Assembly (NCBI GenBank): GCA_024693205.1
Contig: JAILLJ010000027.1
Span: 1-32,704 of the forward strand
Direction: 5' to 3'
DNA: 32,704 nt
Source: Clostridiales bacterium
GTDB lineage: Bacteria; Bacillota; Clostridia; Oscillospirales; Acutalibacteraceae
How positions within the stretch are numbered: position 1 is the first letter of the stretch; every line of letters starts with the position of its first letter. The position numbers were made by a program, and so were the translations under genes. Below are positions 5,198 through 31,480 of this stretch, one piece after another. The notes below the pieces were generated by a model, which worked only from the letters and a program-made list of their open reading frames with translations, was not told the origin of the DNA and did no database searches.

Positions 5198-6283
5198 ATG
5201 AGTAAAAAGCTTAAAGTAGGCATCATCGGATGCGGCGGTATCGCCAACGGCAAGCATATGCCGAGTCTCGCCGAGATCGAAGAAGTCGAAATGGTGGCGT
5301 TCTGCGACATTGTCGAGGAGAGAGCTGTTGAGGCAAAGGAAAAATTCGGTACTCCCGACGCAAAGACATATGTAGATTACAAAGAGCTTTTAAAGGATGA
5401 GAGCATCGACGTCGTCCACGTCTGCACTCCCAACCGTTCCCACAGCTTTATAACCATCGACGCGCTCGAAGCCGGAAAACACGTCATGTGTGAAAAGCCG
5501 ATGGCAAAGACATACGCCGAGGCAAAAAAGATGTACGAGGCTTCCGTACGGACGGGCAAAAAGCTTACGATAGGATATCAGCAGCGCTGGAGAGGCGATT
5601 CGCAGTATCTTTATCAGGCGTGCCGCGACGGCGAGCTCGGCGACATATATTACGCAAAGGCAATAGCGCTCCGCAGGCGCGCCGTGCCGACATGGGGAGT
5701 TTTCCTCAATGAATACGAGCAGGGCGGCGGTCCGCTTATCGATATCGGCACACACGCGCTCGACCTCACTCTCTGGATGATGGACAACTATAAGCCGAAG
5801 ATGGTCGTCGGCACAAAATATAAAAAGCTCAATGACGCTAAAAATACAGCCAACGCGTGGGGCGATTGGGATCCCGAAAAAAATACGGTCGAGGATTCCG
5901 CGTTCGGATTTATCGTGATGGAAAACGGCGCTACGGTGATCCTTGAATCGAGCTGGGCGCTCAATATAGCCGACCCGCACGAAGCCATAACGCTTCTTTG
6001 CGGCGACAAGGCCGGAGCGGATATGTACGACGGACTTCGTATAAACTACGTAAAAAATAACCGCCAGGTGATAGAGAAGCCCGACTTCTCGACGGGCGGC
6101 GTGGCGTTCTTTGAGGGCAAGGGAGACGGTTCTCCGGCGCTGCTTGAGGCGAGAGCATGGATAGACGCCGTGCTTAACGATACCGAGCCTCCGACGAAGG
6201 CGTCGCAGGCGCTCGTAGTGACACAGATACTCGAGGCCATCTACGAATCTTCCAAGACGGGCAAGCCGGTATATTTTGACTGA
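5198..6283 (+). CDS. Gfo/Idh/MocA family oxidoreductase
   Basis: N-terminal Rossmann KVGIIGCGGIANGKHMPSL; HVCTPNRSH; EAGKHVMCEKPMAKTYAEA; GGGPLIDIGTHALDL. Confidence 0.95.
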   Translation: MSKKLKVGIIGCGGIANGKHMPSLAEIEEVEMVAFCDIVEERAVEAKEKFGTPDAKTYVDYKELLKDESIDVVHVCTPNRSHSFITIDALEAGKHVMCEKPMAKTYAEAKKMYEASVRTGKKLTIGYQQRWRGDSQYLYQACRDGELGDIYYAKAIALRRRAVPTWGVFLNEYEQGGGPLIDIGTHALDLTLWMMDNYKPKMVVGTKYKKLNDAKNTANAWGDWDPEKNTVEDSAFGFIVMENGATVILESSWALNIADPHEAITLLCGDKAGADMYDGLRINYVKNNRQVIEKPDFSTGGVAFFEGKGDGSPALLEARAWIDAVLNDTEPPTKASQALVVTQILEAIYESSKTGKPVYFD

Positions 6284-6301
6284 TAAAGGAGAAAAGCCGA
6301 A

Positions 6302-7033
6302 ATGAAAATTGCTGTTCAGTATTATACATTAAGAAACGACTACAAGACCGCCGATGAATTTCTTGCGCTTTTCAAAAAGGTCAAGGAGCTCGGCTTTGAG
6401 GGCATAGAATTTGCCGGCTTCGGCGGAAACGAGCCCGAAAAAATCAGAGCGGCGCTCGACGAGGCGGGACTTGTCGCCGTCGGCGCTCACTACGGTATGG
6501 GCAACTTCGATACGCCCGAAAAGGTGAAGGAGACCATAGCCGTCGCAAAGACTCTCGGCGCTCCCACTATCGGAACGGGCGGAGAGCCTCATAAAACAAA
6601 GGAGGAAGTCGACCGCCTTTGCCGTATCTTCAAGGCCGCCAACGAGATGGGCGAAAAAGAGGGCGTAAAGTTCTATTACCACAACCATTACGAGGAGTTC
6701 CAGATCGATTTTGACGGAAAGCTCTGTGAGGACGTGATCGCCGAGAACACATATATCCAGGTGGACACATACTGGAGCTTTTTCGCAGGCGTCGACAACT
6801 ATAAATTCATGACGGAAAACAAAGACAGGATTGTCCATATCCATATAAAGGACGGAATAGACGGACATCCTACTGCTCTCGGCGAGGGCAACTGCGATCT
6901 TAAAGCGGTCGTAAAGGCCGCCGAGGATATCGGTCTTGAATGGATGATCCTCGAAAACGACGACCCGACGCCAAGCGGTCTCGAGGATATTGCAAGAAGC
7001 ATGAAATATATTAAAGAAAACCTTATATTTTGA
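6302..7033 (+). CDS. Sugar phosphate isomerase/epimerase family protein (xylose isomerase-like TIM barrel)
   Basis: MKIAVQYYTLRNDYKTADEFLALFKKVKELGFEGIEFAGFGG...YYHNHYEEF...QVDTYWSFFAGVD...VHIHIKDG...WMILENDDP. Confidence 0.9.
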   Translation: MKIAVQYYTLRNDYKTADEFLALFKKVKELGFEGIEFAGFGGNEPEKIRAALDEAGLVAVGAHYGMGNFDTPEKVKETIAVAKTLGAPTIGTGGEPHKTKEEVDRLCRIFKAANEMGEKEGVKFYYHNHYEEFQIDFDGKLCEDVIAENTYIQVDTYWSFFAGVDNYKFMTENKDRIVHIHIKDGIDGHPTALGEGNCDLKAVVKAAEDIGLEWMILENDDPTPSGLEDIARSMKYIKENLIF

Positions 7034-7048
7034 AAGGATATGTGAAAT

Positions 7049-8014
7049 ATGAAGCTCGGTGTTTTTACAACGCTTTTAAGCGATCTCTCGCTTGACGAAT
7101 CATGTAAATATTTTAAGTCGCTCGGGATAGAGATGGTCGAGATAGGCTGCGGCGGTTACCCCGGAAACGCCCACGCCGACCCCGAGATCCTTCTGAACGA
7201 CGACGCGAAGCTGAAGGAATTTACCGATACCGTTAAAAAATACGGTCTTGAGATAAGCGCGCTCAGCTGCCACGGAAATCCCGTCCATCCAAATAAGGAG
7301 ATCGCCGCGAAATTCGACAAGACTATCCGCGACACGATCCTTCTTGCCGAAAAGATAGGACTTCATCAGATAAACACATTTTCCGGATGTCCCGGCGACT
7401 GCGAGACGGCGAAATATCCCAACTGGGTGACGTGCCCGTGGCCCAACGACTTTACGGATATCCTTAATTGGCAGTGGAACGAGGTGCTCATTCCGTATTG
7501 GAAGGAGCTTGTCTCATTCGCAAAGGCGCACGGCGTCGACAAGATCGCGCTTGAGCTTCATCCGGGCTTCTGCGTCTACAATACAGAGAGCCTGCTTCGT
7601 CTTCGCGAGGCGGTAGGTCCCGAGATCGGCGCTAACCTCGATCCGAGCCACCTTATATGGCAGGGAATGGATCCCGCCGTCTGCATCAAAAAGCTCGGCG
7701 ACGCGATATTCCATTTCCACGCGAAGGACACAAAGCTCGACAACAGAAACATCGCCGTAAACGGCGTGCTTGATACAAAATCATACTCGGACGAGATCAA
7801 CCGTTCATGGATATTCCGGACGATAGGCTACGGCAACGACGCGTCATATTGGAAGGATATCATCTCCGCTCTCCGCCTTGTCGGATACGACTATGCGATA
7901 AGCATAGAGCATGAGGACAGCCTCATGAGCAAGCGCGAAGGACTTACGAAGGCCGTCGATTTCCTTAAAGGGATGCTCCTTAAGGAAAAAGTCGGCGAGA
8001 TGTGGTGGATCTGA
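7049..8014 (+). CDS. Sugar phosphate isomerase/epimerase family protein (AP endonuclease family 2-like TIM barrel)
   Basis: MKLGVFTTLLSDLSLDESCKYFKSLGIEMVEIGCGGYPGNAHADPEILL...LELHPGFCVYN...IGANLDPSHLIWQGMDP...IFHFHAKDTKLD...ISIEHEDSLMSKREGL. Confidence 0.9.
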   Translation: MKLGVFTTLLSDLSLDESCKYFKSLGIEMVEIGCGGYPGNAHADPEILLNDDAKLKEFTDTVKKYGLEISALSCHGNPVHPNKEIAAKFDKTIRDTILLAEKIGLHQINTFSGCPGDCETAKYPNWVTCPWPNDFTDILNWQWNEVLIPYWKELVSFAKAHGVDKIALELHPGFCVYNTESLLRLREAVGPEIGANLDPSHLIWQGMDPAVCIKKLGDAIFHFHAKDTKLDNRNIAVNGVLDTKSYSDEINRSWIFRTIGYGNDASYWKDIISALRLVGYDYAISIEHEDSLMSKREGLTKAVDFLKGMLLKEKVGEMWWI

Positions 8015-8047
8015 CCCGAAATTTTCAGGAAATACGAGGAGAAAGAA

Positions 8048-9100
8048 ATGGCAAAAAAAGTTATCGGCGGAGCGGTCATAGGCTACGGCGGCATGGGAGG
8101 CTTCCATGCGAATAAAATGCAGACAGTCGACGGGATAAGACTTGTCGGTGTTTACGATATCGATCCCGAAAGAAACAAGGTGGCGAGGGAGCGCGGGATA
8201 AAGGCATATGATTCCCGCGAGGAGCTTCTTGCCGACAAGGATATCGACGTCGTAGTCGTCGCCACGCCAAACGATTTTCATAAGGAAATAGTTATAGACG
8301 TCTTAAAGGCGGGAAAGAACGCCGTCTCCGAAAAGCCGGTCACGCTTTCCTGCGCGGAGCTTGAAGAGATGATCGCCGCGTCGAAAAAATACGGCAAGCT
8401 CTTTACGGTCCATCAGAACAGACGCTGGGACGAGGATTTTCTTACCGTCAAAAAAATAGTCGACGACAACGTTATCGGCAGAGTTTTCCGCATCGAGTCA
8501 AAGGTACACGGCTCCCACGGCATCCCCGAGGGCTGGCGTCAGGAAAAGGAGCACGGCGGCGGAATGCTTCTCGATTGGGGAGTACATCTTCTCGACCAGA
8601 TGCTGACGCTTATGCGCGGTCATAAGCTTGTTTCGGTCTACGCCACCTTTACGAACATAACAAACAAGGAATGTGACGACGGCTTTACCTGTATCTGTAA
8701 ATTCGACAACGACGTCGAATGGGTCGTTGAGGTCGATACAAACAACTTCATCAGCATGCCGAGATGGTATGTGCTCGGTGAAAACGGCTCCGCGGTCGTC
8801 AGGGATTGGGACTGCAGCGGCGAAATCGTCAAGGTCGTAAACTTCGAGCAGTACGAGATCGTTCCGGTACATGCCGGAGCGGGACTGACAAAGACGATGG
8901 CGCCGAGAAACGAGGACACCGTCAAGACGTTCCCGATAGAAAAGGTCGAGGCCGACTGGACGGAATATTATAAGAACCTCATAGCGACGATAAACGGAGA
9001 GGCGACGATCGAGGTAACTCACGACCAGCTTCGTCAGTCCGAGTCGCTGATAGAAGCGATATTCAGATCGGTGGAAACGAACGAAGTAATAAAGTTTTAA
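8048..9100 (+). CDS. Gfo/Idh/MocA family oxidoreductase
   Basis: GGAVIGYGGMGGFHANKMQTVDGIRLVGVYDIDPERNKVARERG; VVATPNDFHKEIVIDVLKAGKNAVSEKPVTLS; GGGMLLDWGVHLLDQML. Confidence 0.95.
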   Translation: MAKKVIGGAVIGYGGMGGFHANKMQTVDGIRLVGVYDIDPERNKVARERGIKAYDSREELLADKDIDVVVVATPNDFHKEIVIDVLKAGKNAVSEKPVTLSCAELEEMIAASKKYGKLFTVHQNRRWDEDFLTVKKIVDDNVIGRVFRIESKVHGSHGIPEGWRQEKEHGGGMLLDWGVHLLDQMLTLMRGHKLVSVYATFTNITNKECDDGFTCICKFDNDVEWVVEVDTNNFISMPRWYVLGENGSAVVRDWDCSGEIVKVVNFEQYEIVPVHAGAGLTKTMAPRNEDTVKTFPIEKVEADWTEYYKNLIATINGEATIEVTHDQLRQSESLIEAIFRSVETNEVIKF

Positions 9101-9144: not shown

Positions 9145-9324
9145 GTCCGTCTGTTTATCCGTCTGTAAGCGGTGAAATGTATTTTCACGAAAAAAATAAG
9201 GCTGTTCTTTAATAAAGGATAAAAAAATTTCCAAAATAGTGTTTATTTCTTCCGAGAAATAGAATATAATAGATAAGTATACATGCGCTCCGGAATGTGC
9301 AATAATTCTAAAAGGGTGATAATT

Positions 9325-10710
9325 TTGACGTCAATAGATGAACTTCTTAAAAAAGTCAAACGAATACATTTCATCGGAATAGGCGGGAGCGGCATGTGCC
9401 CGCTCGCCGAGATACTGAATAAGGAGGGCTATGAGCTTTCCGGCTCCGACAACAACGACGGAGATACATTAAACAGGATCCGCGCTCTTGGCATCCCGGT
9501 ATTTATGGGACAGCGCGCCGAAAACATAAAGGGAGCGGAGATGATAGTATATACCGCCGCTCTTCTTCCGGACAACCCTGAGCTTGTGGCCGCCAAAGGA
9601 TCGGGCATACCGACCTTTGAGCGTTCAAAGCTTTTCGGAGCGATAACGAGGATGTACGGCAACTGCATCGGAGTTTGCGGAACACACGGAAAGACGACGA
9701 CGACGTCAATGCTTTCCCAGATAATGATAGAATCGGGCTGTGATCCGACGTGTGTGATAGGCGGAAAGCTCCCGCTGACCGGCACTAACGGCAGAGTGGG
9801 GCATACCGACCTCATGATATGCGAGGCGTGTGAATTTGTCGATACGTTCCTCGATCTTTCGCCCGACACGGCGGTGATACTTAACATCGACGCCGACCAC
9901 CTCGATTATTTCAAGACGGTAGACAATCTCATAGCGTCGTTTACTAAATTCTCGAACATCACGACAAAAAACATCGTATATAACGGCGACGACGAGAGGA
10001 CATTAAAGGCACTCGAAAGCGTAAAGGATAAAAACATGATAAGCTTCGGCAAGGGCGAAGACTGCGACTATACGGCGAAAAATATCGTGATGAATAGCGC
10101 GTTTCCGGAGTTTGACGTCGTTTATAAGGGAGAGACGCTCGGACGTGTTTCGCTTAAGGTGCCGGGGATCCATAACGTGTACAACGCTCTCGCGGCGATC
10201 GCGGCGGCGAGGCTCAACGGAGTCGAATTTTCCGACATAAAGAAGAGCATTTCAAACTTCCACGGAGCGGGCAGGCGCTTTGAGATACTCGGAAAATGTA
10301 ACGGCGTAACGATAGCCGACGACTATGCCCATCATCCGAAGGAGATCGAGGTCACGTTGACGGCGGCAAAGGAGATGGACTACAAAAGGGTCTGGGCTGT
10401 TTTCCAGCCGTTCACATATTCGCGAACGGCAATGCTGATAGACGACTTTGCAAAAGCCCTGAAGATCGCCGACAGGATAGTGATGACCGAGATAATGGGC
10501 TCGCGCGAAAGAAACACATACGACGTCCACACCTCCCAGCTTGCCGCTAAGATCGACGGCAGCGTATGGTTCGACACCTTTGAGGAGGTCGCGCAGTATA
10601 TCGTCGATAACGCGGAGGACGGCGACCTTGTGATAACGCTCGGATGCGGCGATATCTACAAGGCGGCAAAGCTTATGATAAAAAAATATAAGCAGCAGGG
10701 CGACTGCTGA
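9325..10710 (+). CDS. murC: UDP-N-acetylmuramate--L-alanine ligase
   Basis: VKRIHFIGIGGSGMCPLAEILNKEGYELSGSD; GVCGTHGKTTTTSMLSQI; INIDADHLDYF; ADDYAHHPKEIEVTL. ORF track starts at 9283; the in-frame TTG at 9325 preceded by aaagggtg fits MurC N-termini better. Confidence 0.95.
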   Translation: MTSIDELLKKVKRIHFIGIGGSGMCPLAEILNKEGYELSGSDNNDGDTLNRIRALGIPVFMGQRAENIKGAEMIVYTAALLPDNPELVAAKGSGIPTFERSKLFGAITRMYGNCIGVCGTHGKTTTTSMLSQIMIESGCDPTCVIGGKLPLTGTNGRVGHTDLMICEACEFVDTFLDLSPDTAVILNIDADHLDYFKTVDNLIASFTKFSNITTKNIVYNGDDERTLKALESVKDKNMISFGKGEDCDYTAKNIVMNSAFPEFDVVYKGETLGRVSLKVPGIHNVYNALAAIAAARLNGVEFSDIKKSISNFHGAGRRFEILGKCNGVTIADDYAHHPKEIEVTLTAAKEMDYKRVWAVFQPFTYSRTAMLIDDFAKALKIADRIVMTEIMGSRERNTYDVHTSQLAAKIDGSVWFDTFEEVAQYIVDNAEDGDLVITLGCGDIYKAAKLMIKKYKQQGDC

Positions 10711-10742
10711 GGAGCTTAAAATAAAGGAAGGAGAGCGAAGAA

Positions 10743-13700
10743 ATGAAATATACGATAAACCGAAAGAATTATAAGAGCTTCAAGACGTTTGAACAAAACA
10801 AGAGGGCGGCAAGGTCATATTTTATACCTTATTCATCCGCCGCGGCTCTTAAGGACACGCCGTTCCGCGACGAAAGAAATTCGTCCGACATGGTAAAGGT
10901 CCTTTCGGGCGAATGGGATTTCAAGTATTATTCCGATATCGCCGATATGCCGCGATCCGTCGAAACGGCGGAGATAAGCTTCGATACGGTAAAGGTACCG
11001 TCGACGTGGCAAAGGACAGGCTATGAGCCTCCCGTATATATCAACTGCGCCTATGCCTTCGATGAAACGCCTCCGAATCTTCCCGAAAACATGTCGGCGG
11101 CGATCTATCGCACGTTTTTTGACGTAAACGATCTTACAAAAAAATACATACTTGCCTTTTTGGGCGTAATACCATGTATCGACGTCTACATAAACGGCGA
11201 ATATGTGGGCTACAGCGAGGGCGCTCACAACACCGCGGAATTCGATATAAACGATTTCGTCGCCGAGGGTAAAAACGAGCTTGTCGCCGTCGTTTACAAA
11301 TGGTCGACGGGAACATATCTCGAATGTCAGGATATGTTCAGAGAAAACGGCATTTTCAGAGACGTCCTGCTTTATGAGATGCCGGCGGGCTTCATAAATG
11401 ATTTCGGGATAAAGACAAAGAAGGTCGGTCAGTATTACAGCCTTTCGCTCTCCGTTTCTCTTTTGGGAGAATACGAGGGGTGCTTTGTCGACGTTTCGCT
11501 CGAAAAGGACGGCACGGTCATCGCCGCGGACAGCGTCGAGGCAAAGGAGCTTTCCGAAATATCGTTCGGAAAGCTTGACGTAAAGGAATGGAACGCCGAG
11601 ATACCGGAGCTTTATCAGCTTTATATAACTCTCAAAAAGGACGGACAAGAGATCGAAACGGTGAGAAATTTCACCGGCTTCAAGCATATCGAGATAGACG
11701 GAACCACCTTCCTTTTCAACGGTAAAAACATAAAAATAAAGGGCGTGAACCATCACGACACAGATCCCGTGACCGGCTACGTCATGACAATAGACGATAT
11801 CATCAAGGATATCCGTCTCATGAAGCTGTTCAACGTCAACGGCGTAAGGACGTCTCATTATCCGCCCGATCCTCAGTTCATGACGCTTTGCGACATATAC
11901 GGACTTTATGTCGTGGACGAGGCGGATATCGAGACTCACGGCTGCGGAGTAGAGCCGATAAACGACATAAATGCGATAAGCCACAGCATAAAATGGCTCC
12001 CGCGTTACATCGACAGAGTGTCGCGCATGTACGAGCGCGACAAGAACCACCCCTCCGTAACGATGTGGTCGCTCGGCAACGAGGCCGGCGGATATAAGTG
12101 CCAGGACGGCTGCTTCGATTATCTTCAGAGCGTCTGCCCTGAGATCCCCGTTCACTACGAGGGCGTTTCGAGGACGGCGCGCCACGCGTATTCCGTGATG
12201 TCCGAGATGTACACCCATCCCGACGACCTTATACTCGTCCGCGACAGAAAGAGAAAGAAATGCTATACCGACAAGCCGTTCTTCCTCTGCGAATACTGCC
12301 ACGCGATGGGCGTCGGCCCCGGCAGTCTCAGCGACTATTGGGATATCATTTATTCCGACGATATATTCATGGGCGGCTGTATCTGGGAATGGGCGGATCA
12401 CGCGGTCTATCATGAAAGCGGAAAATACAAATACACCTACGGCGGCGACCACGGCGAGAAGAAGCATGACGGGAATTTCTGCGTCGACGCGCTCTTCTAT
12501 CCCGACAGGACGCCGCATACAGGCGCCTATGAGATGAAAAACGTCTACCGTCCCGTAATGGCGTCATACGACAAAAAGGCCGATGTGTTCAAATTTCTGA
12601 ATACAAACCGTTTCCGCGCCGCCGATTATCTTTCGATCTCGTGGCAGCTTTTCAAAAACGGGGAACCGCTGACAAACGGAGAGTTCTCTCTCCCGATAGA
12701 GCCGCAGCAGGAAAAGAATTTCCGCATCGAGCTTCCCGAAATGACAGACGGCGAATATTATATTGTTTTCACATATCTTGACGGCGCGACAGAGGTCGCA
12801 AAGGAGATGATAAACCTTTGCGGCGAGATGCCTGTCCTCAAAGCGCCCGAGTGCAAAAAAGCGTCCCTGACCGATGAAAACGGATTTGTGACGGTAAAGA
12901 CAAGCGCAGGAAAAGCTGTATTCGACAAGGCGGACGGAGCTATGATCTCCTATGAGATAAACGGAAAAGAGATGCTGAACAAAACGCCCGCCGCTTACAG
13001 GGGCTTTACCGCCAATCTTTTCCGCGCCTCCCTCGACAACGACGATAGGAAAAAAGACGAATGGGCAAAGAACGGCCTCAACGCGTATACTCCCGTTCTT
13101 TCAGCGTTTGAAAGCGGCACGGACACAGATACCGTGTTCGTCAACGCCGACTATAACCTCATTTTCGGCGAACTCAACATAGCGGCAGTCAGGCTGTCAT
13201 ATAAGCTCTACGGCGACGGAACGATAGACGTCGAAGCGTCGGTAACGCCCAAGACTCTCGACTGCGCCGACGACATCCCGCGCTTCGGCGTTATGCTCGA
13301 AATGGACAGGTCGCTCGACAACGTGAGATATTTCGGACTCGGTGAAAAAGAAAATCTTCCCGATTTCACGGCGCAATCCGTCCTCGGGATCTACGACGCG
13401 AAGGTCGACGAGCTATATGAGCCGTACATAAAGCCGCAGGACAACGGCAACCACGGCGGGACGAGATATTTAAAGCTTTCCGACAGCGACGGAGACGGCG
13501 TTGTATTTACGGCGAGCGAAAATCCCTTCAGCTTCAGCGTCCGTCATTTCACACAAAAGCTGCTCTGCGGCGCGAAGCATACAGAGGACGTCGTTGACGA
13601 AAACACAACGGCTGTCAGCATCGACGGCTTTGTAAGAGGCACGGGAACCTCGAGCTGCGGACCCGATACGCTTCCGAAATATAAGGTGGACTGCTCGGCA

Positions 13701-15485
13701 GGTCTTACGTTCGCGTTCAGGATGGCGCCCTTAAAGACGGGATCGGGCGCGAAAACCGCCAAAAAGTCCGAGTCAAAAAAATCGGACGCCCCTAAAGGAT
13801 CAAAAGACGTTTCCGAAGGCGAAACGGAAAATGCGGAGAAAAGCGAAATGTTTGAAATAAAGAAATACGAAAAGACGGTCTACGATACGAAGTTCATCCC
13901 GCGCGCCGTGTCGCCGGAGGAGGTAGGCGTATCGTCAAAGACGATCGAAGAATTTGCCGATATGCTCAACAGCTCGGGCGTTCGTTATCATTCATATATG
14001 ATAATCCGTCACGGCAAGGTCGTCGCGGAGAGCCACCGCTATCCCTTCAATCCCGAAACGCCCCATATAATGTATTCGATAAGCAAGAGCGTCACCTCCT
14101 GCGCGATCGGTCTCGCCATAGAGGAGGGATATCTTACGCTCGACACAAAGGTCGCCGACATCTTCCCCGAATACATAAACGAGGACGAGGCGGAGAAGTT
14201 TTCAAAGATAACGGTCAGACACCTTCTCTCGATGACCGCGGGCAAGGACCCCAACAACATGCTCAACAAGACGAAGGGCCATTGGATAAACCACTTTACG
14301 GACGCCGGATGGTACGGCGAGCCGGGCGAAAAATTCAAGTATATAAATGAAAACATCTACATGCTCTGCGCAATGCTCAAGAGACTTACGGGACAGACGG
14401 TCAGCGAATTTCTGACTCCGCGTCTTTGGGAGCCGCTCGGAGTAAAGACTCCCTATTGGGAGACCGACGAAAACGGGATCGAGTCGGGCGGCTGGGGTAT
14501 TTTCCTGACGCTCGAAGCGTTCGCGAAGTTCCTGCTTGTCTATGAACAAAACGGAAAATTCGAGGACAAACAGATAATACCCGAAAAGTGGGTCGAGGAA
14601 TCGTGCAAGCTCTGGTCAAACAAGGCGCAGCGCGATGACGGCGACTACTCCGGCTACGGCTACTGCTTCTGGATAAGGAGAGCGGACGACGAAAAAACAA
14701 AGGATTACCACGCGTCGGGCGTTTTCGGACAGATAGGACAGATAGATCAAACGAGGGATCTGGTCATCGCCGTAATGAGCGGCGAGACGGACGATTCGCC
14801 TATCTGGAAGGGCATAAATCTCTTTTACAATGACGAAGCGTTCGTGCCGGAGGACAAGTCCCCGACCGAAAACAAGGCGCTCAAAGAAAAGCTCGCTTCC
14901 GTATATATCGACGACGTTCCCTATTCGAGCTACCGCAGTCCGCTCGAAAAGGAAATAAACGACAAGACGGTATTTTTCTCGAAGCCTCTTTTCGCAAATA
15001 TCGCGGGCTTCCCCCCGACGGTGCTCAACATCGTTTCGGTCTATATGACAAAAGACAGAGCGGGAAATATCGACCATGTAAAATTCAGATTTTACGACGA
15101 TTTCTTCCTGTTCCAGTGGCGTGAGGGCGACGAGATATGCTGTATTTTGAGCGGCCTCGACGGGAAATACAGGAGAAGCATGATAACTCTCGCGGGAACG
15201 AGATATACGGCTTGCTCCGCGGCGAAGTGGGTAAACGACGACACGCTCGAACTTTGGATAAGACCTCTTGAGTCGATCGGAAAACGCGTTATGACGTTCC
15301 GCTTCAGCGGCTCCCGCGTGACGCTCGAGATGTACAGCGACCCGACGGTCATGGAAATTCTCGATTCCGTAAGGAAGTACGTTACAAAGATAATCCCGAC
15401 AAAGCACGGCGAGGAAATAACCTCAAAGCTTCTCGACCGCCTTGTGAGTTATATCCAGCCGACGATGAAGGGATATTTGCGCTGA
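10743..15485 (+). CDS. Fusion protein: GH2 beta-galactosidase (about aa 1-1000) + Lys/Ser/Glu-rich linker + class-C beta-lactamase-like serine hydrolase (about aa 1036-1580)
   Basis: GH2: LSGEWDFKYY, VPSTWQRTGYEPPVYIN, HHDTDPVTGYVMT, VTMWSLGNEAGG, KPFFLCEYCHAMG, FRASLDNDD, QDNGNHGGTRYLKL. Linker: GSGAKTAKKSESKKSDAPKGSKDVSEGETENAEKSE. Hydrolase: YSISKSVTS (SxxK), FKYINENIYML (YxN), YHASGVFGQIGQID (HxSG). One uninterrupted reading frame. Confidence 0.93.
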   Translation: MKYTINRKNYKSFKTFEQNKRAARSYFIPYSSAAALKDTPFRDERNSSDMVKVLSGEWDFKYYSDIADMPRSVETAEISFDTVKVPSTWQRTGYEPPVYINCAYAFDETPPNLPENMSAAIYRTFFDVNDLTKKYILAFLGVIPCIDVYINGEYVGYSEGAHNTAEFDINDFVAEGKNELVAVVYKWSTGTYLECQDMFRENGIFRDVLLYEMPAGFINDFGIKTKKVGQYYSLSLSVSLLGEYEGCFVDVSLEKDGTVIAADSVEAKELSEISFGKLDVKEWNAEIPELYQLYITLKKDGQEIETVRNFTGFKHIEIDGTTFLFNGKNIKIKGVNHHDTDPVTGYVMTIDDIIKDIRLMKLFNVNGVRTSHYPPDPQFMTLCDIYGLYVVDEADIETHGCGVEPINDINAISHSIKWLPRYIDRVSRMYERDKNHPSVTMWSLGNEAGGYKCQDGCFDYLQSVCPEIPVHYEGVSRTARHAYSVMSEMYTHPDDLILVRDRKRKKCYTDKPFFLCEYCHAMGVGPGSLSDYWDIIYSDDIFMGGCIWEWADHAVYHESGKYKYTYGGDHGEKKHDGNFCVDALFYPDRTPHTGAYEMKNVYRPVMASYDKKADVFKFLNTNRFRAADYLSISWQLFKNGEPLTNGEFSLPIEPQQEKNFRIELPEMTDGEYYIVFTYLDGATEVAKEMINLCGEMPVLKAPECKKASLTDENGFVTVKTSAGKAVFDKADGAMISYEINGKEMLNKTPAAYRGFTANLFRASLDNDDRKKDEWAKNGLNAYTPVLSAFESGTDTDTVFVNADYNLIFGELNIAAVRLSYKLYGDGTIDVEASVTPKTLDCADDIPRFGVMLEMDRSLDNVRYFGLGEKENLPDFTAQSVLGIYDAKVDELYEPYIKPQDNGNHGGTRYLKLSDSDGDGVVFTASENPFSFSVRHFTQKLLCGAKHTEDVVDENTTAVSIDGFVRGTGTSSCGPDTLPKYKVDCSAGLTFAFRMAPLKTGSGAKTAKKSESKKSDAPKGSKDVSEGETENAEKSEMFEIKKYEKTVYDTKFIPRAVSPEEVGVSSKTIEEFADMLNSSGVRYHSYMIIRHGKVVAESHRYPFNPETPHIMYSISKSVTSCAIGLAIEEGYLTLDTKVADIFPEYINEDEAEKFSKITVRHLLSMTAGKDPNNMLNKTKGHWINHFTDAGWYGEPGEKFKYINENIYMLCAMLKRLTGQTVSEFLTPRLWEPLGVKTPYWETDENGIESGGWGIFLTLEAFAKFLLVYEQNGKFEDKQIIPEKWVEESCKLWSNKAQRDDGDYSGYGYCFWIRRADDEKTKDYHASGVFGQIGQIDQTRDLVIAVMSGETDDSPIWKGINLFYNDEAFVPEDKSPTENKALKEKLASVYIDDVPYSSYRSPLEKEINDKTVFFSKPLFANIAGFPPTVLNIVSVYMTKDRAGNIDHVKFRFYDDFFLFQWREGDEICCILSGLDGKYRRSMITLAGTRYTACSAAKWVNDDTLELWIRPLESIGKRVMTFRFSGSRVTLEMYSDPTVMEILDSVRKYVTKIIPTKHGEEITSKLLDRLVSYIQPTMKGYLR

Positions 15486-15550: not shown

Positions 15551-16465
15551 ATGAAAAAATCGCTTTTAAAAATTTTTGCTCTCGCGCTTTCCGTTTTGAT
15601 GGTACTTTCGTTTGCCGCATGCGGCGGCGATAAGGACGACACGACCGATGTGACCGAGCCCGCGGCGGACACGACCTCTGCAGACGTCATGACCGAAGAA
15701 ACCGGAAACGACGAAACATCCGCTCCCGCCGACGTGACCGAGCCGGAAGAAACTACGGCCGAAGCGACGACGGAAACGACGACTGCGGAAGAAACTACAC
15801 AGGCCGCCCAAAAGGCTCCTTCGGGCAAAGCGGAGATCATTAAATTTTATAACGACGCGACAGCCAAAGCCGTCGAAAAAAAGGCCGCCTTCTCAAAGAC
15901 GAGAGAGACGGGCAGCGAGACATATGACGCGGGTCTTGCGCTCAAGGCGTTCAAGAACATCGTCTATAAGTTCATGGGTATCGGCTCCGAAAACAAATAC
16001 ACAAAGGACGTTGTGAAGGGCGACGAGAGCTACGAAAAATATTTCAAAGCGAGCACCCTTTCCGAATCCGACGTCACCTCCGCGACATGCGACGTGTCCG
16101 GCAAAAATTACGTCATCACTCTTTCGGTTAAAGACGGGTCAAGCTCCGTTATCGACGGACAGTCCGTTTCCCTCAACGCTCCGCTTGACAAGAGCGGTAT
16201 AAGCTCCGGCACGGAGGACAAGGACTATTACGACCACAAGACGGCCCAGTGCGTATATGACGCCATCAACGAGATAGCGGGCAACGCCACTATAAAGGAA
16301 GCATATTCAAGCGCCGTCGTCAAGGCGACAGTTGACAGCGAGACGGGCGAGATCAAAGATATTACCGTGACGTTTGACATTGATTTTGAAATGTCACAGA
16401 TCTACGGCTCCGGCGGAACGGCGAGCGGCACGACTACAGTTAAATTCACGAACTTCAATTATTAA
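15551..16465 (+). CDS. Hypothetical lipoprotein with Thr/Glu-rich linker
   Basis: MKKSLLKIFALALSVLMVLSFAAC lipobox, then DDTTDVTEPAADTTSADV...EETTAEATTETTTAEETTQ low-complexity stretch. SD agaggaga upstream. Confidence 0.9.
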   Translation: MKKSLLKIFALALSVLMVLSFAACGGDKDDTTDVTEPAADTTSADVMTEETGNDETSAPADVTEPEETTAEATTETTTAEETTQAAQKAPSGKAEIIKFYNDATAKAVEKKAAFSKTRETGSETYDAGLALKAFKNIVYKFMGIGSENKYTKDVVKGDESYEKYFKASTLSESDVTSATCDVSGKNYVITLSVKDGSSSVIDGQSVSLNAPLDKSGISSGTEDKDYYDHKTAQCVYDAINEIAGNATIKEAYSSAVVKATVDSETGEIKDITVTFDIDFEMSQIYGSGGTASGTTTVKFTNFNY

Positions 16466-23091: not shown

Positions 23092-23877
23092 TTGAACGAC
23101 AAAACCGGTCAGGAGCAAAATACTCTTATAATAGGAAGAAACGCGCTGCTTGAGGCGCTGAAAAGCGGACGTGAGATAGACTGCGTCACTGTAGCGAGGG
23201 GCGAACGCGGAGGTTCGATAGGAAAGATAATATCCGAATGTAAAAAGATCGGTATCCCCGTCAAAGAGGCCGACTCAAAAAAGCTTGATTATATGTGCGG
23301 CCACTCAAACCACCAGGGAGTTATAGCATCCGTTGCGGCGCATGAATATTCCTCTCTCGAGGATATCCTTTCGGCGGCTGATGAAAAGGGCGAACCGCCG
23401 TTCATCATCATTTGCGACGGGCTTGAGGATCCCCATAATTTAGGCGCGATAATACGTACCGCGGAGGCGGCGGGCGCTCACGGAGTGATAATACCGAAGC
23501 GTCGGAGCGCGTCGCTGACATTCGCTACCGCAAAGACGTCGGCAGGCGCTGTAGAATATGTGCCTGTAGCGCGCGTGACAAATATCGCGTCCACCATAGA
23601 CGAACTGAAAAAAAGGGGAGTCTGGATATACGGCGCGGACGTCGGCGGTACTATGTGGTGCGACTCAAAGGCCGACGGCGCAGCGGCTCTCGTAATAGGC
23701 TCCGAGGGATATGGCCTCAGCCGTCTCGTAAAGGAAAAATGCGATTTTATAATGTCTCTTCCGATGAAGGGAAAGATCAATTCCCTGAACGCCTCAGTGG
23801 CGGCGGGAATACTGATGTATGAAATATTACGTCAGCGTTCAGATATAAAAACAGATGCGGGAGGAAATGCGAAATGA
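23092..23877 (+). CDS. rlmB: 23S rRNA (guanosine-2'-O-)-methyltransferase RlmB / TrmH-family SpoU methylase (TTG start)
   Basis: IIGRNALLEALKSGREIDCVTVARG...ICDGLEDPHNLGAIIRTAEAAGAHGVIIPKRRSASLTFATAKTSAGAVEYVPVARVTN...LVIGSEGYGLSRLVKEKCDFIMSLPMKGKINSLNASVAAGILMYE. SD aaaggag. Confidence 0.95.
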   Translation: MNDKTGQEQNTLIIGRNALLEALKSGREIDCVTVARGERGGSIGKIISECKKIGIPVKEADSKKLDYMCGHSNHQGVIASVAAHEYSSLEDILSAADEKGEPPFIIICDGLEDPHNLGAIIRTAEAAGAHGVIIPKRRSASLTFATAKTSAGAVEYVPVARVTNIASTIDELKKRGVWIYGADVGGTMWCDSKADGAAALVIGSEGYGLSRLVKEKCDFIMSLPMKGKINSLNASVAAGILMYEILRQRSDIKTDAGGNAK

Positions 23878-26800
23878 GCGACAGATATGTCAGCGGCTCG
23901 GGCGACGGAAACGACGAGATAGACCGTATCCTTGCTGAAGTCAATAAACAAAACATGGAGAGATCCGCATACGATAACGACACGCTTGCCCCGCGTAAGC
24001 AGTGGACAGACAGCGAAATAAACAGGCTGCTCGGAAAAGACGATCCGACGGCAGGTATTTCCGACTACGATTTTCCGGAGCCGGAGGATCTTACATATGT
24101 TCCCGAGGTCGTCGACGACCTTTCGTTTAATGTTCCAAAGGATTCGAGCGAGCCGGAAACGGTAACGCCCGATGAAAAATCGGAGACGTCAGATGAGCCG
24201 CGTGAAGCGATACCGGTATTTACCGTCGAGGAAACCGACGATACGTCGGCGGAGAATATAGATATTTCGGCGGACGAAACGGCGACGGAGGTGCCCTTTG
24301 AAGTCCAAGGAAACGAAGAGCCGACAGATATATTTTCTTCCGAAAGGCCGTCGGAGAAAGCTCCCGAACAGGCGGTAAAAAGAGAACGCGGCTTTTTCGG
24401 AAAAAAGCCCGTCCGTCAGGAACAACAGCCGTTTACGACAAATCAGCTCAGGGCGTCCGGTCTCGGAAAGTCGACCGACCCCTCGCGCGCCGCGACGCCG
24501 AGGACGACGCATATCCCGCAGCCTACAGAGGATGTAAGACAGTCTCTAAACAGCGATGCGACAAAAACATTCAGACCGATCCGTCCGGGTCAGTCAAGAG
24601 CTCCGCAGGGGAGACAGGGCGTAAGAGGAAACAGGCCCGATAGGATCGGAGCGGGACAGAGATCTGCCGTTTTGAATACGGCGGGAAGTCAAAACAAAAA
24701 AACATCCCCCGACGTAACGGAGGACGTAGATATATATTCCGACTCAAGCATAGCGCGTAAATTTGAAAATATGCGCGAAAATGCGGGGAGAGACGGTAAA
24801 AGAAAAGGCCCGCGTACGGTAAAGCTTCAGACCGACGGAGAAAATCTCTTTCCCGTATACGACGGCGAGATGCATAACGAACAGCGCGAAAGGTTCATGC
24901 GCAAGGTCGAATACAAACATCCCGACGAGGATTACGATCCCAAGACCGACAAGACCCCTATCGAGGAGCCGGGCGTCATAGTTAAGGAAGGAAAGACCGA
25001 CGAAAAGACGGGACTTGTCGAGGTGCCGCAGATCCGCTTTGCCGACAACATGCTTCGCGACGCAAAAGAAGGTAAGACAATAGTCGCCGAGACAAAGGAG
25101 CCTAAACCGGCTCCGAAAGAAAAAGAGTCCGAGATGGTGGACGGCCAGATAACTCTCCGGGGCTTTTCGTTCAGCGACGACGTCGAAAAGGTCGACGAAA
25201 AGCAGGTCGAGGGAGAGCTCAGCAGCAAGCGCCAGGAAAAGGCAAAAAATTTCAGGATAATGAAATTTGCCTCCGAATACGAGACTGATCTTCCGAAGCC
25301 CTATGAGGACGAGGAAGAAAAGGATGAAGAAACGGGACCGGGCGAAGGAGAGGAAGGGAACAACGCCGAGCCGACGGAATACACACATCCGTCCGAGCGG
25401 ATGAAGATCGGCCACTCGCTTCTTAAGACGAGAAGATCGCTTATGATCTCGACCTTGGGAGTGGGCGTTATAGATCTTATCCTTATCATCCTCTCACAGG
25501 TTGCAAAAAACAGCATGAACGCCGATGTGATATTTGCCGTGTCGACATTCCTTTTGTCCGGAGCGGCGGCGCTCTGCATAAATTCCGTTATCGCCGGCTT
25601 CAAGGCTCTCTTTACCGGAAAGCCCAATGAGGATTCTGCCGTTTCGATAGTTCTCGCGTTCGCATTTATCCACAGCATATTGGCGTTTATATTCTCATCG
25701 TCGCTCGGCGAAGCGAGCATATACTGCGCCGCGTCGGTATTTTTACTTTTACTGAGCAGGGCGTCAAAGATACTTGCAAATTCCGCGACGCTTAAAAACT
25801 TCAAGTTCTGCGCGTTCAAGGATTCCGAGTCCATATACGGAATACAGAATTTCGACGACAAGAACACGAGCTTTGAAATAGGACGCAGTCTTCTTCTCGG
25901 CGATCCCGAGCTGAGATATTCCTGCCGCGCAAAATTCCCGTCCGATTTTATAAAATATTCAAATCTCCAAAATCCGACCGAAAAGGTAGCGAAGCTTCTT
26001 ATCCCCGCCGCCGCGGGCATAAGCTTTATTGTCGCTATAATAGGCTGGATAAAGTCGGACGGAGTTCTGATGAGCGCGTTCACTTCGTTTGTCGGAGCGC
26101 TCTGCATTTCGATGCCGGCATGCGCTTCGCTGGCTGTAACGCTTCCGTTTTTCATCGAATCGGGCAAGCTCACACAAAGCGGAGGAATGATAGCGTCGCC
26201 CGGAGCGGCGGCCATATGCAGCAGCGCAAATGCGGTCGTTATAAACAGCGCCGACCTTTACGACGGAGATCATTGTAAGATGTTCGGCTTTAAGGATTAT
26301 AAGGCGACAAATATCAAGGATATCCTGCTCTACGCCGCGGCGATGGTAATAGGCTCCGGCGGACCGCTTACGACGGAATTTGAAAAAATAATAGAACACA
26401 GCAACATATTACTGCCTCCCGTAAAGTCGCTGAAATATGAAGAAAAGCTGGGACTTACCGCGTGGATACGCGGACAGAGGGTGCTTCTCGGCAACAGAAA
26501 TCTCCTTATCAACCACAGCATCGAAACGCCTCCAAAGGGCGCCGAACAAAAATATACCGAGACAGGCAAACGCGTTCTTTACATGGCTATCGAAAACAGG
26601 CTCGCCATCATGCTCGTCGTCGGATACGCCGAAAACGAGAGCCTTCGTCCGTATCTCCGCAGGCTGATAGAGGACGGAAAAAATATCCTCGTCAGCGTAA
26701 CGGACTGCAACATCACCGAGGAATTTATCAACGAGGGCTTCGGGCTTCCGCCCGGATGCGTTAAAATAATCAGCCCGACCGCGGCCGCCATGTTCGGAGA

Positions 26801-27083
26801 CGAAATCAAAAAGATAAAACAGTCCGTGCCCGCGACGGCGATCCATGACGGAAAGCCGGAGTCGTTCCTGCGCTGTGTTTCTGCGGCGACGTCTGTTAAA
26901 AACATCGCCAACACTGCGGCGCTCTTTGAAATGATCGGAGCAGCCCTCGGACTTTTGCTCTTCATCATCTTGCTTCTTGCCGTCGGCCTTTCGGGCGTCG
27001 GCTCGCTGACGGTGATACTCTTTACTCTCCTTTGGACAGCCGTAGCGGCAGGCTTCGGGATAGTAAGAAATCTTAAACGTTAA
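23874..27083 (+). CDS. Large membrane protein resembling a degenerate (catalytically inactive) P-type ATPase with a long disordered charged N-terminal region
   Basis: About 500-aa hydrophilic acidic N-terminus; hydrophobic segments LMISTLGVGVIDLILIILSQ, VIFAVSTFLLSGAAALCINSVI, SAVSIVLAFAFIHSILAFIF, ASIYCAASVFLLLLS, LLIPAAAGISFIVAIIGWI, FVGALCISMPACASLAVTLPFFI, then ANAVVINSADLYDG where DKTGT is expected, LTAWIRGQRVLLGNRNLLINHSIETP (nucleotide-domain-like), NILVSVTDCNITEEFINEGFGLP where TGDN is expected, and two C-terminal TM segments. ATGA overlap with rlmB. Confidence 0.7.
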   Translation: MSDRYVSGSGDGNDEIDRILAEVNKQNMERSAYDNDTLAPRKQWTDSEINRLLGKDDPTAGISDYDFPEPEDLTYVPEVVDDLSFNVPKDSSEPETVTPDEKSETSDEPREAIPVFTVEETDDTSAENIDISADETATEVPFEVQGNEEPTDIFSSERPSEKAPEQAVKRERGFFGKKPVRQEQQPFTTNQLRASGLGKSTDPSRAATPRTTHIPQPTEDVRQSLNSDATKTFRPIRPGQSRAPQGRQGVRGNRPDRIGAGQRSAVLNTAGSQNKKTSPDVTEDVDIYSDSSIARKFENMRENAGRDGKRKGPRTVKLQTDGENLFPVYDGEMHNEQRERFMRKVEYKHPDEDYDPKTDKTPIEEPGVIVKEGKTDEKTGLVEVPQIRFADNMLRDAKEGKTIVAETKEPKPAPKEKESEMVDGQITLRGFSFSDDVEKVDEKQVEGELSSKRQEKAKNFRIMKFASEYETDLPKPYEDEEEKDEETGPGEGEEGNNAEPTEYTHPSERMKIGHSLLKTRRSLMISTLGVGVIDLILIILSQVAKNSMNADVIFAVSTFLLSGAAALCINSVIAGFKALFTGKPNEDSAVSIVLAFAFIHSILAFIFSSSLGEASIYCAASVFLLLLSRASKILANSATLKNFKFCAFKDSESIYGIQNFDDKNTSFEIGRSLLLGDPELRYSCRAKFPSDFIKYSNLQNPTEKVAKLLIPAAAGISFIVAIIGWIKSDGVLMSAFTSFVGALCISMPACASLAVTLPFFIESGKLTQSGGMIASPGAAAICSSANAVVINSADLYDGDHCKMFGFKDYKATNIKDILLYAAAMVIGSGGPLTTEFEKIIEHSNILLPPVKSLKYEEKLGLTAWIRGQRVLLGNRNLLINHSIETPPKGAEQKYTETGKRVLYMAIENRLAIMLVVGYAENESLRPYLRRLIEDGKNILVSVTDCNITEEFINEGFGLPPGCVKIISPTAAAMFGDEIKKIKQSVPATAIHDGKPESFLRCVSAATSVKNIANTAALFEMIGAALGLLLFIILLLAVGLSGVGSLTVILFTLLWTAVAAGFGIVRNLKR

Positions 27084-29121: not shown

Positions 29122-29158
29122 TAAAGGCGTACGCCGCGACTGTGCGGCGTTGCCTTAA
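29122..29158. repeat. Solo hairpin copy of the palindromic element seen at 3131-3297
   Basis: aaaggcgtacgccgcgactgtgcggcgttgccttaa; compare aaggcgtacgccgcgatttgtgtggcattgccttag at 3262-3297. Confidence 0.8.
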
Positions 29159-29649
29159 TAATCGTTTAATGTAAACAGCGTTTCACGGACGCCGGATTTG
29201 TCGATATCGCGCAGCGCAGGCGCGAAATAAAGACCGAGCGCCCTGCCGGCGGGAAACAGGTCGCCGAGAGGAACAAGCACAAACGCCCTTTTCAGTATGC
29301 CCGGATGAGGGAGCGTCAGCTCGAACGATTCGTCCCTGATGTTTTCAAAAAGCAGAAGATCGAGGTCTATCGTCCTCGGGCCGTCCTTTACCGTCCTTAG
29401 CCGACCCATAGCCGCCTCTATCCCGAGACAGGCGCCTAAAAGCGCTCTCGGAGTAAGGCGCGTCTCGATGAGTATCGCCGCGTTGAAAAAGTCGGGTTGA
29501 ATGACCTCCCCGACGGGTACGGTCTCGTATATTTTTGACAGCCCTACGACCTGTGTTCCGGGAAGAAGAGATACAGCCTTGACAGCCGCCTTTAAATTTG
29601 TGGGGCTGTCTCCGAGATTGGAGCCGAGTCCTATAACAGCTTTACTCAT
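29155..29649 (-). CDS. folK: 2-amino-4-hydroxy-6-hydroxymethyldihydropteridine diphosphokinase (HPPK)
   Basis: AVIGLGSNLGDSPTNLKAAVKAVSLLPGTQVVGLSKIYETVPVG...QPDFFNAAILIETRLTPRALLGACLGIEAAMGR...GPRTIDLDLLLFENI...LPHPGILKRAFVLVPLGDL. Confidence 0.96.
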   Translation of the reverse strand: MSKAVIGLGSNLGDSPTNLKAAVKAVSLLPGTQVVGLSKIYETVPVGEVIQPDFFNAAILIETRLTPRALLGACLGIEAAMGRLRTVKDGPRTIDLDLLLFENIRDESFELTLPHPGILKRAFVLVPLGDLFPAGRALGLYFAPALRDIDKSGVRETLFTLNDY

Positions 29650-30916: not shown

Positions 30917-31480
30917 TTATTTTTGTCCTTTGAGAAGAGTCATGACCTCGGCTCTTGTTCTCGCGTCGCTTCGCATCATTCCTCTTAACGCGGAGGTCTG
31001 CGTTTCACTGCCTGCCGCGCGCGCTCCGCGCATCGTCATACAGAGGTGCTGAGCCTCGATGACGACCGCCACTCCCTTCGGAGAAAGCTCGGCAAAGAGG
31101 AAATCGGCTATCTGCGCCGTAAGGCGTTCCTGGAGCTGAGGACGCTTTGCGAAGGTGTCGACTATCCTCGCGAGCTTGGAAAGCCCTATCACCTTACCGT
31201 CGTTGGGGATGTACGCGATATGCGCCTTTCCCATGAATGGGATCAGATGATGCTCGCACATCGAATAGAGCGGTATATCGCGGACGATCACCATTTCGTC
31301 GTTGTTGTTTTCGTTAAAAATTTTAAGATGTCTTTTCGGGTCGTCCTCGAGTCCCGAAAAAATCTCTTCATACATCCTCGCGACTCTCGCGGGAGTTTCG
31401 ACAAGCCCTTCTCTGTCGGGGTCTTCGCCGATGGCGATAAGTATATCGCGCACAGCGTTTTCGATTTTTTGTTTATCCAT
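30917..31480 (-). CDS. folE: GTP cyclohydrolase I
   Basis: [20 protein letters not shown]...[65 protein letters not shown]...[32 protein letters not shown]. Confidence 0.98.

What the first reader, a model, noticed from the sequence alone, without database searches (positions are those of the whole stretch)
10743..15485. Single ORF fusing complete GH2 beta-galactosidase to a class-C beta-lactamase-like serine hydrolase
Both halves look full length with catalytic motifs intact: GH2 acid/base WSLGNEAG and nucleophile FLCEYCHAMG; hydrolase SISK, YIN and HASG motifs. They are joined by a K/S/E-rich linker of about 35 aa. No signal peptide is visible at the N-terminus, so both activities would be cytoplasmic, which is odd for a penicillin-binding-type fold. 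Pairing suggests deacylation plus de-galactosylation of one substrate (an acylated galactoside), or a glycan ester step. It sits directly downstream of murC on the same strand.
Basis: partly seen in the sequence, partly recalled or inferred. Interest (0 to 1): 0.7.

Follow-up and report, generated by a model that had tools for sequence, protein, structure and literature searches.

The report
Galactosidase fused to lipid-esterase-like enzyme
In one genus of uncultured gut-type Clostridia, a sugar-cutting enzyme (beta-galactosidase) and an ester-cutting enzyme encoded next door have merged into a single protein; relatives of the second enzyme sit beside a lipid-breakdown gene, so the fused protein probably strips both the fatty (acyl) and the galactose part from one molecule inside the cell.

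Summary
ORF 10743-15485 (1580 aa) fuses a complete LacZ-type GH2 beta-galactosidase (52-994) to a class-C-beta-lactamase-fold serine hydrolase, "HYD" (~1046-1580). It is not an assembly artefact: four species of the genus carry the fusion with unrelated linkers, and six carry the same two genes unfused in tandem, three of them in one frame with a single intervening stop. No other fusion was seen in 200 genomes (135 genera) of the family. Both halves keep their core catalytic residues; the "HASG" histidine is not conserved. (1) murC-GH2 is a tight conserved bicistron (mostly -16 to +5 nt), also found in 12 genomes that lack HYD there. (2) HYD paralogues lie beside YhhN (lysoplasmalogenase family) in 24 genomes of 10 genera, including this one. 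HYD is therefore most likely a cytosolic acyl esterase of lipid metabolism, not a beta-lactamase or PBP. Best mechanism: de-acylation plus de-galactosylation of one acylated beta-galactoside, most likely a galactosyl glycerolipid; the substrate is inferred. Rivals: acylated oligosaccharides, or a LacA/BAS-suc-like acyltransferase. Status: new variant (new domain pairing) of known enzyme kinds.

The parts
9283..10710 (+). murC (UDP-N-acetylmuramate--L-alanine ligase), conserved upstream partner of the GH2 gene
   Evidence: TIGR01082 451.9 bits against cut-off 335; directly upstream of GH2 in all 10 genus loci and in 12 genomes outside the HYD-bearing clade
10743..15485 (+). Fused ORF, 1580 aa: GH2 beta-galactosidase + linker + serine hydrolase (HYD)
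10896..11384 (+). GH2 sugar-binding domain (PF02837), residues 52-214
11505..11684 (+). GH2 immunoglobulin-like domain (PF00703), residues 255-314
11688..12557 (+). GH2 TIM barrel (PF02836), residues 316-605; E447 at 12081-12083 and E517 at 12291-12293
12597..12776 (+). LacZ domain 4 (PF16353), residues 619-678
12909..13724 (+). Bgal_small_N (PF02929), residues 723-994
13743..13877 (+). Linker, residues 1001-1045, K/S/E-rich; length and sequence not conserved among the four fused species
13835..13850 (+). Possible relic of the former HYD start: GGAG, 9 nt, in-frame ATG at 13848; could give some free HYD (inferred, not seen in other fused species)
13878..15482 (+). HYD half, residues 1046-1580
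13992..14780 (+). Beta-lactamase-fold serine hydrolase domain (PF00144), residues 1084-1346; S1112 at 14076, K1115 at 14085, Y1200 at 14340
15069..15341 (+). C-terminal antiparallel beta domain of HYD (about 8 strands), residues about 1443-1533
   Evidence: AlphaFold2 model, pLDDT 89, pTM 0.90

Best explanation
A cytosolic bifunctional hydrolase made by loss of the stop codon between two adjacent genes. Shown by sequence comparison: an older murC-GH2 gene pair gained a HYD gene directly downstream in one genus, and in one branch of that genus GH2 and HYD are one protein with a flexible, unconserved linker. Inferred: the N-terminal half is a retaining beta-galactosidase (E447 acid/base, E517 nucleophile). 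The C-terminal half is a Ser-Lys-Tyr acyl esterase (S1112 attacks an ester, K1115 and Y1200 act as base, water releases the acyl group). The two work in sequence on one acylated beta-galactoside. Because HYD paralogues are paired with YhhN, a family whose tested members act only on lipids already deacylated at sn-2, the favoured substrate is a beta-galactosyl glycerolipid (galactosyl diacylglycerol, its vinyl-ether form, or a lyso form): HYD removes fatty acid and GH2 releases galactose from the resulting galactosylglycerol. Fusion fixes a 1:1 ratio and keeps the intermediate close. The fusion, its history and the enzyme classes are solid (above 0.9); shared action on an acylated galactoside about 0.55; a galactosyl lipid specifically about 0.35.
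For: Fused ORF and domains. Four fused and six tandem species; fused HYDs one clade (96/95), GH2 halves agree (SH-aLRT 92), the pair-type HYD clade 100/100. All LacZ -1-subsite residues examined are kept in all or nearly all of the 98 homologues, except D for N604 and C for W999, which nearly all of these homologues share. HYD catalytic core invariant; nearest folds are esterases, NylB and an acyltransferase. HYD-YhhN neighbours: 26 same-strand pairs in 24 genomes of 10 genera, YhhN nearly always downstream, mostly at about 140-300 nt. A tested YhhN needs a free sn-2 hydroxyl, so a de-acylating partner is expected (PMC9052158). Galactosylglycerols from galactolipids are named as LacZ substrates (PMC8333865). 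Gram-positive bacteria often hold glycosyldiradylglycerols, partly as vinyl ethers (PMC9702350). No sugar transporter or sugar regulator was identified beside the gene in the window, and only murC (and, further off, zapA and U32) is conserved around it. The genome holds another LacZ-like gene (C76), so this copy is not the sole one.
Against: No biochemical evidence for any substrate. The YhhN link is to HYD paralogues at about 40% identity, never to the GH2-linked copies. The PF09989 marker that I take from memory for plasmalogen synthesis is absent from this genome and from several others with HYD-YhhN, so an endogenous vinyl-ether lipid is not required. E. coli has YhhN too, so YhhN alone does not prove plasmalogens. 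A cytosolic enzyme would reach only inner-leaflet or imported lipid. The GH2 active site is generic. Joint transcription with murC may be positional.
Confidence: 0.5

Rival explanations
1. The pair handles imported plant or mucus oligosaccharides bearing O-acyl groups: HYD takes off acetyl (or other short acyl) esters in the cytosol so that GH2 can remove beta-galactose.
For: Cytosolic esterases and GH-CE two-domain enzymes (Xyn10D, Xsa43H) are known in the rumen bacterium Butyrivibrio proteoclasticus (PMC5217386). No signal peptide is visible on either part. Many close relatives come from rumen and gut samples.
Against: No transporter, regulator or other glycan gene was identified next to it in the window, and none is conserved in the genus; HYD paralogues pair with a lipid-enzyme family rather than with glycan genes.
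Confidence: 0.25
2. HYD is an acyltransferase, a counterpart of LacA beside LacZ: it acylates galactosides (or another acceptor) instead of de-acylating them, as BAS-suc succinylates cholic acid.
For: The best NCBIfam match of HYD is 3-succinylated cholic acid synthase (E 1.5e-52), a beta-lactamase-family acyl enzyme (PMC11749272). Macrolactin acyltransferase and EstCE1 are among fold neighbours. E. coli has lacZ-lacY-lacA in one operon.
Against: Score 179 bits against a curated cut-off of 800, so it is not that enzyme. Closest folds are hydrolases. YhhN pairing fits de-acylation better.
Confidence: 0.15
3. The fusion is mostly about co-expression: two cytosolic enzymes with unrelated substrates joined by chance stop loss in a murC operon and kept because it is harmless.
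For: In three tandem species the genes are in one frame with a single stop between them, so one base change fuses them. Linkers are unconserved. Six related species do without fusion.
Against: The pair is kept adjacent in all 10 genus genomes with the locus recovered, at roughly 50-60% protein identity to the window, and the fused form persists across a clade of four species.
Confidence: 0.1

Closest known systems
GH2 LacZ/Ebg-type beta-galactosidase (E. coli LacZ, NF052611)
   Same: All domains in order and the catalytic and -1-subsite residues examined, except N604 to D and W999 to C
   Different: Carries a C-terminal serine hydrolase; below the curated NCBIfam cut-offs (734 bits against 999); lies in a murC bicistron, not beside a permease
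YhhN-paired serine hydrolases of the same bacterial family (HYD solo paralogues)
   Same: Same length, alignable end to end, invariant S-x-x-K and Y, about 40% identity
   Different: Paralogues are separate genes beside YhhN; the GH2-linked copies form their own 100/100 clade
BAS-suc, 3-succinylated cholic acid synthase (NF045925)
   Same: Best NCBIfam match for HYD over about 350 residues
   Different: 179 bits against cut-off 800; no bile-acid genes seen nearby; not fused to GH2
Class C-like esterases and PBP homologues with solved structures: Lsa45 (8dc1), PIB-1 (8rlj), NylB (1wyb), EstG (7uda)
   Same: Same core fold and, by established knowledge of the fold, the same Ser-Lys-Tyr arrangement
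   Different: About 20% identity, TM-score by query length at most 0.51; HYD has an extra C-terminal beta domain
Cytosolic GH-esterase two-domain enzymes of Butyrivibrio (Xyn10D, Xsa43H; PMC5217386)
   Same: Glycosidase and esterase in one cytosolic polypeptide
   Different: Other GH families (10, 43) and xylan substrates
lacZ-lacA of E. coli
   Same: Beta-galactosidase and an acyl-group enzyme in one operon
   Different: LacA is an unrelated acetyltransferase fold (own knowledge) and is not fused

Membership tests
GH2 beta-galactosidase (LacZ type) | Five LacZ domains including Bgal_small_N | tested here: met
   Pfam matches above cut-off for PF02837, PF00703, PF02836, PF16353, PF02929
GH2 beta-galactosidase (LacZ type) | Acid/base E461 and nucleophile E537 plus D201, H357, H391, H418, N460, Y503, H540, W568, F601 | tested here: met
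   Alignment to E. coli LacZ: E447, E517 and the rest conserved; N604 to D and W999 to C as in nearly all these relatives
GH2 beta-galactosidase (LacZ type) | Hydrolysis of beta-galactosides | not testable with these tools
   needs enzyme assay
Class C beta-lactamase (AmpC) | S-x-x-K nucleophile motif | tested here: met
   S1112-I-S-K1115, invariant in 29 sequences
Class C beta-lactamase (AmpC) | Y-x-N motif | tested here: inconclusive
   Y1200 invariant; N present here but S in many homologues
Class C beta-lactamase (AmpC) | Third motif K/H-T/S-G conserved | tested here: not met
   HASG is found in this protein; H and S are not conserved in the family
Class C beta-lactamase (AmpC) | Curated model score (NF033085, cut-off 415 bits) | tested here: not met
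   26.9 bits
3-succinylated cholic acid synthase (BAS-suc) | Curated model score (NF045925, cut-off 800 bits) | tested here: not met
   178.7 bits, positions 31-378 of 498
YhhN-linked HYD family | Sequence relatedness and catalytic core | tested here: met
   about 40% identity over full length; tree joins it to solo copies
YhhN-linked HYD family | YhhN gene next door | tested here: not met
   None of the GH2-linked copies has YhhN beside it; the solo copy in the same genome does
YhhN-linked HYD family | Lipid acyl-ester hydrolysis | not testable with these tools
   inferred from gene pairing only

The most novel reading that the evidence does not exclude
A dedicated galactolipid-degrading fusion: one cytosolic protein that both de-acylates and de-galactosylates beta-galactosyl glycerolipids (plant-derived or the cell's own, vinyl-ether forms included), evolved from a previously undescribed HYD-YhhN lipid-turnover gene family and expressed with murC as part of envelope upkeep.
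Probability: 0.25. Interest if true: 0.65.

Novelty: new variant of a known kind. Interest (0 to 1): 0.45.

Why it matters
Fusions reveal which reactions belong together. This one, caught with its unfused forms in sister species, says that a LacZ-type enzyme and a beta-lactamase-fold esterase may share a job. The wider signal may matter more: a family of cytosolic PF00144 proteins, easily mis-annotated as beta-lactamases, is repeatedly paired with YhhN across gut-type Clostridia, pointing to an untested bacterial route for breaking down (lyso)plasmalogens or related lipids, and for the fused form to bacterial use of galactolipids, an old suggestion for what LacZ is for (Egel 1979, cited in PMC8333865). 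The murC-GH2 bicistron is a second unexplained and testable link.

Tried and rejected
Assembly or frameshift artefact: rejected, since four species are fused with different linkers and six others show clean stop plus start junctions. Class C beta-lactamase or PBP: rejected on curated score, motif and location. Altered GH2 active site: I first read D201 as replaced by T from motif memory; the alignment showed D197 at that place. Plasmalogen synthesis genes as an explanation for HYD-YhhN: PF09989 is absent from this genome and from G001-G003, G010, G012 and G019, all of which carry HYD-YhhN; the choice of PF09989 as the marker rests on memory and was not confirmed in PMC12838417. The iolG/iolE-like cluster upstream (5198-9100) as partner: not conserved next to the pair in relatives. 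Literature for a GH2-PF00144 fusion or a YhhN/beta-lactamase neighbourhood: nothing relevant found. A second structure prediction was not used because four fused sequences are too few to place the two halves relative to each other. The order 'tandem first, then fused' rests on outgroups being separate genes and on the start-like relic in the linker; the tree alone, in which fused and tandem are sister clades, would also allow fusion first and splitting later.

Full report
Observation. The window holds one open frame from 10743 to 15485. Pfam assigns residues 52-994 to the complete LacZ-type GH2 set and 1084-1346 to Beta-lactamase PF00144. The window is the whole of contig C142 of a 2.17 Mb, 188-contig genome that is 84% complete.

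Is the fusion real? The locus was compared in every same-genus genome where it was recovered. In G007, G009, G005 and the window the two parts are one frame; linkers differ in length (gaps of 216, 48, 48 and 135 nt between the anchor points used) and in sequence. In G001, G002, G003, G004, G006 and G010 GH2 ends with a stop and HYD has its own start, mostly with a visible ribosome-binding site. In G001, G002 and G004 the two genes are in the same frame with one stop between them, so loss of one stop makes the fusion. The window linker ends in MFEIKKYEKTVYDTKF, which resembles the N-terminus of the tandem HYD genes (for example MAEITMTRFEHEQQDSIR), with GGAG nine bases before the ATG (13835-13850). 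That looks like a fossil start and might still give some free HYD.

How wide is it? In 60 relatives and in 200 genomes of the family from 135 genera, HYD lies in a frame above 1000 aa only in this genus. An 80-locus scan of public genomes returned no GH2-HYD pair outside the genus, either fused or in tandem. Trees agree: the GH2-linked HYD copies are one clade (100/100), the fused ones one clade (96/95 for HYD, SH-aLRT 92 for GH2), the tandem ones another.

murC. The GH2 gene directly follows murC in the genus and in 12 more genomes that lack HYD at the locus. Gaps are -16 to +5 nt in 19 of 22 loci; the exceptions are 32 (the window), 158 and 377 nt. The other flanks of several of the twelve differ, so this is a bicistron rather than general synteny. 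Its meaning is unknown; it implies expression together with cell-wall synthesis. In other genera of the family murC is followed by other genes and GH2 lies elsewhere.

GH2 half. Alignment with E. coli LacZ (locus L161) shows the catalytic pair and the galactose-binding residues conserved in the window and in all or nearly all of 98 homologues; the only changes are N604 to D and W999 to C, shared by nearly all of these relatives. Ordinary beta-galactosidase chemistry is expected (inference). The genome has at least one more LacZ-like gene, on C76.

HYD half. S1112, K1115 and Y1200 are invariant in 29 sequences; the H of HASG and the N of YIN are not. AlphaFold2 gives a confident model (pLDDT 89, pTM 0.90) with a C-terminal antiparallel beta domain. 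Foldseek places the core in the beta-lactamase fold and ranks Lsa45, PIB-1, 6-aminohexanoate-dimer hydrolase, EstG, a family VIII carboxylesterase and macrolactin acyltransferase high. The best curated name is 3-succinylated cholic acid synthase but far below its cut-off; class C beta-lactamase is further still. No signal peptide is evident in the tandem HYD proteins or in the solo ones whose N-termini were read (judged by eye).

What the paralogues say. Solo HYD genes have a conserved neighbour of about 240 aa, which is YhhN, PF07947. From coordinates, one search counts 26 same-strand neighbour pairs in 24 genomes of 10 genera, nearly always HYD then YhhN. This genome has such a pair too, with HYD apparently split over contig ends C47 and C74. 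A mycobacterial YhhN was shown to hydrolyse lysoplasmalogens, to need a free sn-2 hydroxyl, and to occur in an organism without its own plasmalogens (PMC9052158). A de-acylating partner would supply that substrate. The family is therefore read as lipid acyl esterases (inference from gene pairing). The marker PF09989 is absent from this genome and from several others with the pair, so the lipid need not be an endogenous plasmalogen; that marker was chosen from memory.

Mechanism. If HYD is a lipid esterase, the natural joint substrate with a beta-galactosidase is a beta-galactosyl glycerolipid: HYD frees fatty acid, GH2 then frees galactose from galactosylglycerol. LacZ is reported to cleave galactosylglycerols derived from galactolipids (PMC8333865), and Gram-positive bacteria often carry glycosyldiradylglycerols, partly as vinyl ethers (PMC9702350). 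Shown: fusion, its relatives, conserved residues, predicted fold, neighbourhoods. Inferred: esterase activity, lipid substrate, order of steps, benefit of fusion.

Rivals. Acylated oligosaccharides are possible, and cytosolic GH-esterase two-domain enzymes are known in Butyrivibrio (PMC5217386), but no transport or glycan gene was identified beside it. Acyl transfer (LacA-like, BAS-suc-like) is possible because the fold supports both reactions. Neutral fusion is possible because it takes one mutation, but the pair has stayed together across species only 50-60% identical to the window in these proteins.

Verdict. A real, clade-restricted gene fusion of two known enzyme families, with a conserved-neighbourhood clue that changes the likely role of the second half. 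New variant of a known kind; moderate interest; substrate untested.

Noticed in passing
window 9283-10742; L043, L046, L047, L049-L051, L053, L055-L059: murC and a LacZ-type GH2 gene form a tight bicistron (gap mostly -16 to +5 nt) in two related clades with differing outer flanks; no known reason links them.
   Followed up: partly
G000 C74:57-1441 (L128) and 23 other genomes: PF00144 serine hydrolase directly beside YhhN (lysoplasmalogenase family), 26 same-strand neighbour pairs in 24 genomes of 10 genera; looks like an undescribed lipid-turnover gene pair.
   Followed up: partly
window 29672-30895 (-): Dihydropteroate synthase fused to dihydroneopterin aldolase (Pterin_bind 26-263 + FolB 292-403), in a folate cluster with HPPK (29155-29649) and folE (30917-31480).
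   Followed up: no
window 23874-27083 (+): 1069-aa protein directly after a SpoU-type rRNA methyltransferase; no Pfam domain at E below 1 and only weak NCBIfam similarity (heavy-metal P-type ATPase models, part of the protein).
   Followed up: partly
window 5198-9100 (+): Two Gfo/Idh/MocA oxidoreductases flanking two sugar-isomerase TIM barrels (iolG/iolE-like), a likely 3-keto-sugar or inositol-type module; not conserved beside murC-GH2-HYD in relatives.
   Followed up: partly
window 15551-16465 (+): 304-aa protein with no confident family, between the fusion and a YgjP-like gene; a homologue sits at the same place in G007 (L122 12716-13936).
   Followed up: no
L109 (JAMPEQ010000008.1) and L023 (G031): A contig labelled Bacteroides sp. 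carries a GH2 gene identical to that of a genome placed in this Clostridia family; the label of the public record looks wrong.
   Followed up: no
G000-G010: PF09989 (2-hydroxyacyl-CoA dehydratase activase-type domain, a possible plasmalogen-synthase marker) is present in about half of the genomes of this genus and absent from the rest.
   Followed up: partly
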